DNA of 64,000 bases, taken from the NCBI RefSeq assembly GCF_000948285.1, contig NZ_JYBP01000003.1, positions 1,178,001 to 1,242,000 of the forward strand, in the 5' to 3' direction. The DNA comes from Geobacillus kaustophilus (lineage in GTDB: Bacteria; Bacillota; Bacilli; Bacillales; Anoxybacillaceae). This document shows positions 46,087-46,114 of this stretch, piece by piece (position 1 is the stretch's first letter; every line of letters starts with the position of its first letter). Under the pieces are notes generated by a model that was not told the DNA's origin, ran no database searches, and was given only the letters and a program-made list of their open reading frames with translations. The position numbers and the translations under genes are program-made.

Positions 46087-46114
46087 AGTTTACATAATAT
46101 AAATTATAAGAAGT
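46087..46114 (-). other. dif: Chromosome dimer resolution site (dif)
   Basis: On the minus strand the 28 bp read ACTTCTTATAA (XerC side), TTTATA, TTATGTAAACT (XerD side). Against the Firmicutes dif consensus as I recall it (ACTTCCTATAA-TATATA-TTATGTAAACT) this is 26 of 28 matches, with the XerD half perfect. It lies in a 400-bp gene-free gap (45902-46301) exactly where gene orientation flips from + to -, and 6 kb from rtp. XerC/XerD-type recombinases (CodV/RipX) and FtsK/SpoIIIE would act here. Confidence 0.88.

What the first reader, a model, noticed from the sequence alone, without database searches (positions are those of the whole stretch)
46087..46114. dif site at the exact gene-polarity switch: this is the replication terminus
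26 of 28 bases fit the Firmicutes dif consensus as recalled, with the whole XerD half intact. Left of it most genes run +; right of it almost all run - (nsrR and speE excepted). rtp lies 6 kb to the right. Three independent signs agree. Genes next to dif (45.1-45.9 kb) are decayed.
Basis: partly seen in the sequence, partly recalled or inferred. Interest (0 to 1): 0.82.

Follow-up and report, generated by a model that had tools for sequence, protein, structure and literature searches.

The report
Geobacillus terminus: dif inside fork trap
The 28-base site is a dif site marking the end point of chromosome replication in a Geobacillus-type bacterium, and it lies inside a set of one-way replication barriers that probably hold the end point there even though the two chromosome arms are very unequal.

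Summary
The finding holds. Window 46087-46114 is a dif site: 25 of 28 bases match the B. subtilis-type dif, the XerD arm is intact, and it is the only match with at most 3 mismatches in the genome. Cumulative GC skew peaks at 46159, 45 bp past dif. In sampled stretches skew is positive in 22 of 25 on the left arm and negative in 29 of 29 on the right. A true rtp gene lies 5.8 kb away.

RTP-type Ter sites (AAAACTATGTKCTAAATMATCA) flank dif. All 9 in this genome at <=1 mismatch point the trapping way; 79 of 80 exact sites do so in 16 genomes of the family. Three are in the window. The same motif sits in rtp promoters of five Metabacillus/Peribacillus-type loci, which ties it to RTP.

dif is 404 kb from the point opposite dnaA (arms 38.7:61.3), so the trap is probably used every cycle here (inferred). 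Exact Ter sites also occur on Geobacillus plasmids beside a replication gene.

dif itself is ordinary. The trap is a new member of the RTP-Ter kind; fork arrest is untested.

The parts
46087..46114 (-). dif site, reading ACTTCTTATAA-TTTATA-TTATGTAAACT on the - strand (XerC arm, 6-bp centre, XerD arm)
   Evidence: 3 mismatches to B. subtilis dif, 0 of 100 shuffles; unique in genome; in 39 of 41 family genomes
51904..52278 (-). rtp, replication terminator protein, 124 aa
   Evidence: PF02334 178.8 bits; phmmer to solved B. subtilis RTP 1bm9 E 1.6e-50
10093..10122 (+). Ter-like site left of dif (core 10106-10122, exact), 36 kb from dif; B-site side faces dif
   Evidence: no ORF of 60 aa or more over it
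60243..60272 (-). Ter-like site right of dif (core 60243-60259, 1 mismatch), 14 kb from dif
   Evidence: no ORF of 60 aa or more over it; a site at this position in G. thermocatenulatus, G. proteiniphilus, G. zalihae
61836..61865 (-). Ter-like site right of dif (core 61836-61852, exact)
   Evidence: no ORF of 60 aa or more over it; a site at this position in the same three species
46159..46159 (.). maximum of cumulative GC skew in the window

Best explanation
The site is the chromosomal dif of a Geobacillus-type bacterium. It lies inside an RTP-Ter replication fork trap. Ter sites on the left (+) and right (-) have their B-site side towards dif, so a fork that has passed dif meets the blocking face and stops, while a fork arriving from oriC passes. 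The innermost Ter pair is 50 kb apart and encloses dif and rtp. Forks therefore meet within this interval, and XerC/XerD resolve chromosome dimers at dif there. In this strain one arm is 1.39 Mb and the other 2.20 Mb. The rightward fork should reach the trap first and wait, so the trap fixes the terminus about 0.4 Mb from the geometric midpoint. Shown: sequence, uniqueness, skew switch, Ter polarity, conservation, recombinase and rtp genes. Inferred: RTP binding, fork arrest, waiting, dimer resolution.
For: dif unique and at the skew switch. dif in 39 of 41 family genomes and in 22 of 24 named rtp loci at +5.0 to +9.3 kb from the rtp start, all in one relative orientation. Ter motif at <=1 mismatch: 385 sites in 41 family genomes against 26 for the reversed-pattern control. 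Polarity: 79 of 80 exact chromosomal sites correct in 16 genomes, 62 of the 80 within 5% of the chromosome on either side of dif; a further 25 of 25 on dif contigs of nine split or draft genomes; in the own genome 9 of 9 at <=1 mismatch. The four bases before the core (AAAC), not part of the search pattern, carry 1.6-2.0 bits each over 42 distinct sites. The same motif lies within 280 bp upstream of rtp in five Metabacillus/Peribacillus-type loci (exact 16-base pattern in 4, one mismatch to the 17-base pattern in the fifth), and the B. subtilis-type Ter lies there in 10 of 10 B. subtilis-group loci. XerC/D genes.
Against: Sites in related genomes are partly orthologous, so the binomial P of 7e-23 overstates independence. 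One-mismatch sites are mostly noise (40 of 65 correct). In G304 one exact and one one-mismatch Ter lie 5-6 kb on the wrong side of dif. No good Ter match lies in this genome's rtp promoter (best 6 mismatches in 400 bp), nor in 9 of 9 Priestia-type loci including Metabacillus iocasae (one of them only partly held). The A-site half, needed for arrest in B. subtilis (PMC5295017, passages), is only weakly conserved here. Five genomes of families f40, f41, f3 and f33 have a clear rtp but 0, 0, 0, 0 and 1 hits to the wider pattern, so motif and RTP do not go together everywhere. dif is 404 kb off the antipode. The polar-sequence test (GAGAAGGG) was too sparse to decide.
Confidence: 0.88

Rival explanations
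1. dif and terminus are real, but the Ter-like motifs no longer arrest forks or serve another protein (for example a polar chromosome-organising sequence); termination is by free fork collision.
For: No arrest data. The rtp promoter lacks the autoregulatory Ter here and the A-site half is weak. RTP and Tus mutants have little phenotype (PMC13220808, passages).
Against: The motif sits in rtp promoters of related genera. 79 of 80 exact sites keep polarity and 62 of 80 cluster near dif. The skew switches at the trap, not at the midpoint.
Confidence: 0.09
2. The 28-mer is a chance AT-rich match and the terminus is elsewhere.
For: dif lies 404 kb from the antipode of dnaA; AT-rich intergenic location.
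Against: 0 of 100 shuffles, unique in genome, conserved in 39 of 41 family genomes. The skew maximum lies 45 bp past it, and this is the only sampled sign switch away from dnaA, apart from a small negative island at 3.577-0.025 Mb.
Confidence: 0.01

Closest known systems
Bacillus subtilis dif / CodV-RipX
   Same: 28 bp, 11+6+11 layout, XerD arm identical, 25 of 28 bases, single copy at the skew switch
   Different: 3 substitutions (two in the XerC arm, one in the centre); binding untested
Bacillus subtilis RTP-Ter fork trap
   Same: RTP 69-71% identical to those of ten B. subtilis-group loci; Ter core differs little (ATGTTCTAAATAATCA against ATGTACTAAATATTCA); two opposed clusters; dif and rtp inside
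   Different: T or G where B. subtilis has A, and AATCA end; weak A-site half; no Ter in the rtp promoter of this genome; terminus 404 kb off the midpoint in this strain
Escherichia coli Tus-ter
   Same: Works alike: polar barriers pointing at dif
   Different: Unrelated protein; short core resemblance (ATGTTGTAAYKAA, PMC3317982, passages) taken as coincidence or convergence, not tested

Membership tests
dif (XerCD chromosome dimer resolution site) | 28 bp with XerC and XerD arms around a 6-bp centre | tested here: met
   25 of 28 to B. subtilis dif, XerD arm 11 of 11
dif (XerCD chromosome dimer resolution site) | single copy per chromosome at the GC-skew switch | tested here: met
dif (XerCD chromosome dimer resolution site) | XerC and XerD encoded in the genome | tested here: met
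   TIGR02225 412.5 and 329.7 bits, cut-off 329.6; assigning the second as XerC is inference
dif (XerCD chromosome dimer resolution site) | binding and recombination by XerC/D | not testable with these tools
   experiment needed
RTP (PF02334) | full-length match above cut-off, relative of solved RTP | tested here: met
   178.8 bits against 26.7; 1bm9 E 1.6e-50; no NCBIfam model matched
RTP-Ter fork trap | Ter sites of RTP type (B-site half) | tested here: met
   motif found in rtp promoters of related genera; 385 sites against 26 control
RTP-Ter fork trap | A-site half beside the B site | tested here: inconclusive
   upstream half A/T-rich, weakly conserved over 42 sites
RTP-Ter fork trap | two opposed clusters with dif between | tested here: met
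   own 9 of 9, family 79 of 80 exact sites
RTP-Ter fork trap | Ter in the rtp promoter (autoregulation), as in B. subtilis; not a requirement for arrest | tested here: not met
   best match 6 mismatches in 400 bp upstream in the own genome; 2-3 mismatches in 5 of 6 family relatives tested
RTP-Ter fork trap | polar fork arrest | not testable with these tools
   experiment needed

The most novel reading that the evidence does not exclude
RTP-Ter is an old and widespread fork-trap system of Bacillales rather than a late B. subtilis acquisition, and Geobacillus and Parageobacillus plasmids have taken up host-type Ter sites (exact 17-mers next to the replication gene, one set inside a near-palindrome) so that the host's RTP steers or ends plasmid replication, a counterpart of the Tus-ter plasmids.
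Probability: 0.3. Interest if true: 0.65.

Novelty: new member of a known kind. Interest (0 to 1): 0.5.

Why it matters
Papers seen here in passages describe RTP traps as not broadly conserved outside close relatives of B. [quoted passage not shown] one genome paper infers late acquisition in B. subtilis (PMC545597). A high-scoring rtp in all 12 of the window's family that one search lists, with a clear Ter array, speaks for an older and wider system. This strain also has strongly unequal arms with the trap 404 kb off the midpoint. It is a natural case in which 'terminus set by trap' and 'terminus set by midpoint' give different, measurable answers.

Tried and rejected
Second dif-like element: 12-13 bases of the XerD arm plus centre recur just 3' of rtp (window about 51865-51886). 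It is present at <=1 mismatch in 15 of 24 family loci. It looks like a promoter or operator element of the following AAA/VWA genes: 6 of the 9 loci without it share a different downstream sequence, which in L205 I read by eye as a CsoR-like start. I rejected it as a second dif: its spacer is 5 bp and its XerC arm is poor in most loci (closest to dif in L194).

B. subtilis Ter consensus used at full length: only 5-7 mismatch hits, or 9 in one variant, shown in the window. The motif became visible through the shorter B-site half.

SpoIIIE-type GAGAAGGG polarity (motif recalled): too few occurrences in the sampled stretches, inconclusive.

Second dif copy on G316:C5: identical over 3028 bases to the chromosomal terminus stretch, so probably an assembly duplicate.

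One-mismatch Ter hits: mostly noise away from dif (40 of 65 correct), not used as evidence. Three-mismatch scan: 241 hits against 95 for the reversed control, listing truncated, not used.

Families of the plasmid genes beside the Ter: no Pfam or NCBIfam match for the 469-aa gene of L178 or the 280-aa gene of L183; 'replication protein' is the annotation of related records.

Full report
CHECK OF THE OBSERVATION. The 28 bases at 46087-46114 read AGTTTACATAATATAAATTATAAGAAGT on the + strand. In the own genome (3,684,318 bases in 3 contigs; window = C3:1178001-1242000) the site is the only one within 3 mismatches. 'Anoxybacillaceae', the family name in GTDB, is recalled.

TERMINUS. Contig C3 has 3,587,279 bases, with dnaA at 3,421,823-3,423,142. 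I sampled 50 stretches of C3 and used the window and the dnaA locus. Skew is positive in 22 of 25 stretches on the dnaA-to-dif arm in the + direction; the 3 exceptions form one island around the contig start (3.577-0.025 Mb). It is negative in 29 of 29 on the other arm, counting the stretch across dnaA with it; the weakest is -0.017. For these tables I split the window at dif. In the unsplit 2-kb profile the sign changes between 44001-46000 and 46001-48000, with weaker bins elsewhere in the window. The cumulative maximum is at 46159. XerD- and XerC-like recombinases are encoded.

UNEQUAL ARMS. dnaA to dif is 0.387 of the chromosome in the + direction; dif is 404 kb from the antipode. In 15 relatives of the family the shorter arm is 0.43-0.50, except G325 with 0.306 (G304's 0.432 is measured on a contig of 2.83 Mb of about 3.2 Mb). 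Comparison with G315 (20 stretches) shows the terminus region in the same orientation, but a segment at -1271 to -1462 kb in G315 lies inverted at +895 to +1075 kb here, so inter-arm inversions are part of the story. The anchors are few.

TER SITES. The published B. subtilis Ter consensus is KMACTAANWNNWCTATGTACYAAATNTTC (PMC3317982; passages). Genome-wide, ATGTTCTAAATNAT with at most 1 mismatch gave 14 sites against 3 for the reversed control. With the refined pattern WWTGTKCTAAATNATCA at <=1 mismatch the own genome has 9 (control 0): + at 840840, 1119452, 1120977, 1121176, 1188106 (all left of dif) and - at 1238243, 1239836, 1242476, 1634322 (all right). Eight of the 9 have no ORF of 100 aa or more over them; the site at 1119452 overlaps a 134-aa ORF.

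FAMILY TEST. In 41 family genomes the pattern has 385 hits against 26 for the reversed control, and dif has matches in 39 of 41. On 16 genomes, 79 of 80 exact sites on the dif contig have the trapping polarity and 62 of 80 lie within 5% of the chromosome on either side of dif. The one exception is G304, 6.3 kb beyond dif. On dif contigs of nine further genomes (two split, seven draft) 25 of 25 agree. One-mismatch sites are near chance (40 of 65), though 17 of the 21 near dif agree. Over 42 distinct exact sites the consensus is AAAACTATGTTCTAAATAATCAAT with G also at the K position. The core is fixed by the search, but AAAC before it and A after it are not, and they are conserved. Further upstream, where the A site should be, it is A/T-rich with weak conservation.

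WHY RTP. In named loci, 10 of 10 B. subtilis-group rtp genes carry the known-type Ter within 175 bp upstream. Five loci (three Metabacillus, Bacillus sp. PAMC26568, Peribacillus frigoritolerans) carry the Geobacillus-type motif within 280 bp upstream, four with the exact 16-base pattern and M. mangrovi with one mismatch to the 17-base pattern. Two of 2 Salipaludibacillus loci carry a CCAAATTATCA version. Nine Priestia-type loci, among them Metabacillus iocasae, carry none near rtp, and neither do the family's own loci. The own RTP matches solved RTP and is 69-71% identical to the B. subtilis-group ones. Other RTP families also show opposed sites at 0 mismatches to WTGTNCYAAATNWTCA: about dif, G140 6 of 6 correct, G083 5 of 8, G101 2 of 3, G192 5 of 6. 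About the antipode, G191, G263 and G067, where no dif was found, give 4 of 5, 4 of 6 and 5 of 5; in G191 and G263 the sites still form one converging set off the antipode. G166 and one G192 site on another contig were not tallied. Five genomes of f40, f41, f3 and f33 have rtp but 0, 0, 0, 0 and 1 hits. Three genomes with only weak (38-40 bit) PF02334 matches, G006, G258 and G036, have 0, 1 and 1.

MECHANISM. Passages of PMC13220808 and PMC5295017 state that arrest occurs when the B site faces the incoming fork. With the motif written A-to-B, + sites left of dif and - sites right of dif present the B side towards dif. Forks can enter the 50-kb interval 1188106-1238243 and not leave it. Because the arms are 1.39 and 2.20 Mb, the first fork should wait at the right-hand sites (14-18 kb past dif). 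This last step is inference from lengths, assuming equal fork speeds.

DISTRIBUTION AND LITERATURE. PF02334 matches 135 of 299 sampled genomes of the order at E <= 0.001, 87 over the cut-off, but many are weak PadR-like relatives; 55 score above 120 bits. The 12 genomes of the window's family that one search lists all do; 144 genomes without a match are not listed by the call. Named relatives include Geobacillus, Parageobacillus, Anoxybacillus, Thermolongibacillus, Priestia, Metabacillus, Peribacillus, Salipaludibacillus and the B. subtilis group. Searches for RTP, Ter or fork traps together with Geobacillus (open PMC papers only) listed 9 papers in all; I saw passages of five (PMC13220808, PMC3290774, PMC2639701, PMC5295017, PMC4317669), none describing Ter sites in Geobacillus; the other four I saw only in the listing. 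[quoted passage not shown] PMC545597 infers late acquisition in B. subtilis because B. licheniformis and B. halodurans lack rtp (passage), and PMC4317669 reports none in Lysinibacillus sphaericus CBAM5, so losses or absences in the order are real too. Predicted dif lists for Firmicutes exist (PMC3025954, passages) and may already include Geobacillus.

PLASMIDS. Exact Ter 17-mers occur on plasmid-sized contigs (29-62 kb) of six relatives. Four of these (G311, G313, G315, G316) share one context, between a gene annotated in some related plasmids as replication protein and a ComEC-like gene. That region matches 15 plasmid records, 14 Geobacillus and one [Bacillus] caldolyticus. Of six records fetched, the five with that context carry an exact site (L300), a one-mismatch site (L303) or a degenerate site at the same place (TGTTCTAATTAATCA in L298 and L299, TGTGCTAATTAATCA in L301). 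In the other two relatives (G321, G325) the site is half of a near-palindrome, and a similar one is on a G. thermodenitrificans plasmid (L302). No function is shown.

VERDICT. What is added is the RTP-Ter trap, its polarity test across the family, and a strain in which trap and midpoint disagree.

Noticed in passing
L178:9852 (G311:C2), L179:11463, L180:9624, L181:9384, L182:7693: Exact Ter 17-mer on Geobacillus plasmids between a replication-protein gene and a ComEC-like gene; degenerate versions kept in diverged plasmids L298, L299, L301.
   Followed up: partly
L183:9365, L184:9612, L302:6424: Ter 17-mer forming half of a near-palindrome (ATTATTTAGAAC-TAT-GTTCTAAATAAT) on Parageobacillus-type and G. 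thermodenitrificans plasmids.
   Followed up: partly
window 51865-51886: Conserved TTTACATAATAT dyad just 3' of rtp sharing 12-13 bases with the dif XerD arm; in 15 of 24 family loci at <=1 mismatch, probably a promoter element of the next AAA/VWA genes.
   Followed up: partly
G000:C3:1634322: The outermost right Ter lies about 6 kb from the geometric midpoint of the chromosome (1.628 Mb); may be coincidence.
   Followed up: no
window 10106-10122 and family consensus: The Geobacillus Ter core ATGTTCTAAATAA resembles the E. coli Tus ter core ATGTTGTAAYKAA although the proteins are unrelated.
   Followed up: no
G000:C3:3577280-3587279 and 1-25000: Island of reversed GC skew around the contig start, with low GC in 1-25000; perhaps an inverted or acquired segment.
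   Followed up: no
families f40, f41, f3, f33 (G080, G138, G216, G196, G033): Genomes with a clear rtp but 0-1 hits to the Ter pattern; their RTP may use a different site.
   Followed up: no
G316:C5:5029: Second dif copy on a 15.9-kb contig, identical over 3 kb to the chromosomal terminus; probably an assembly duplicate.
   Followed up: yes
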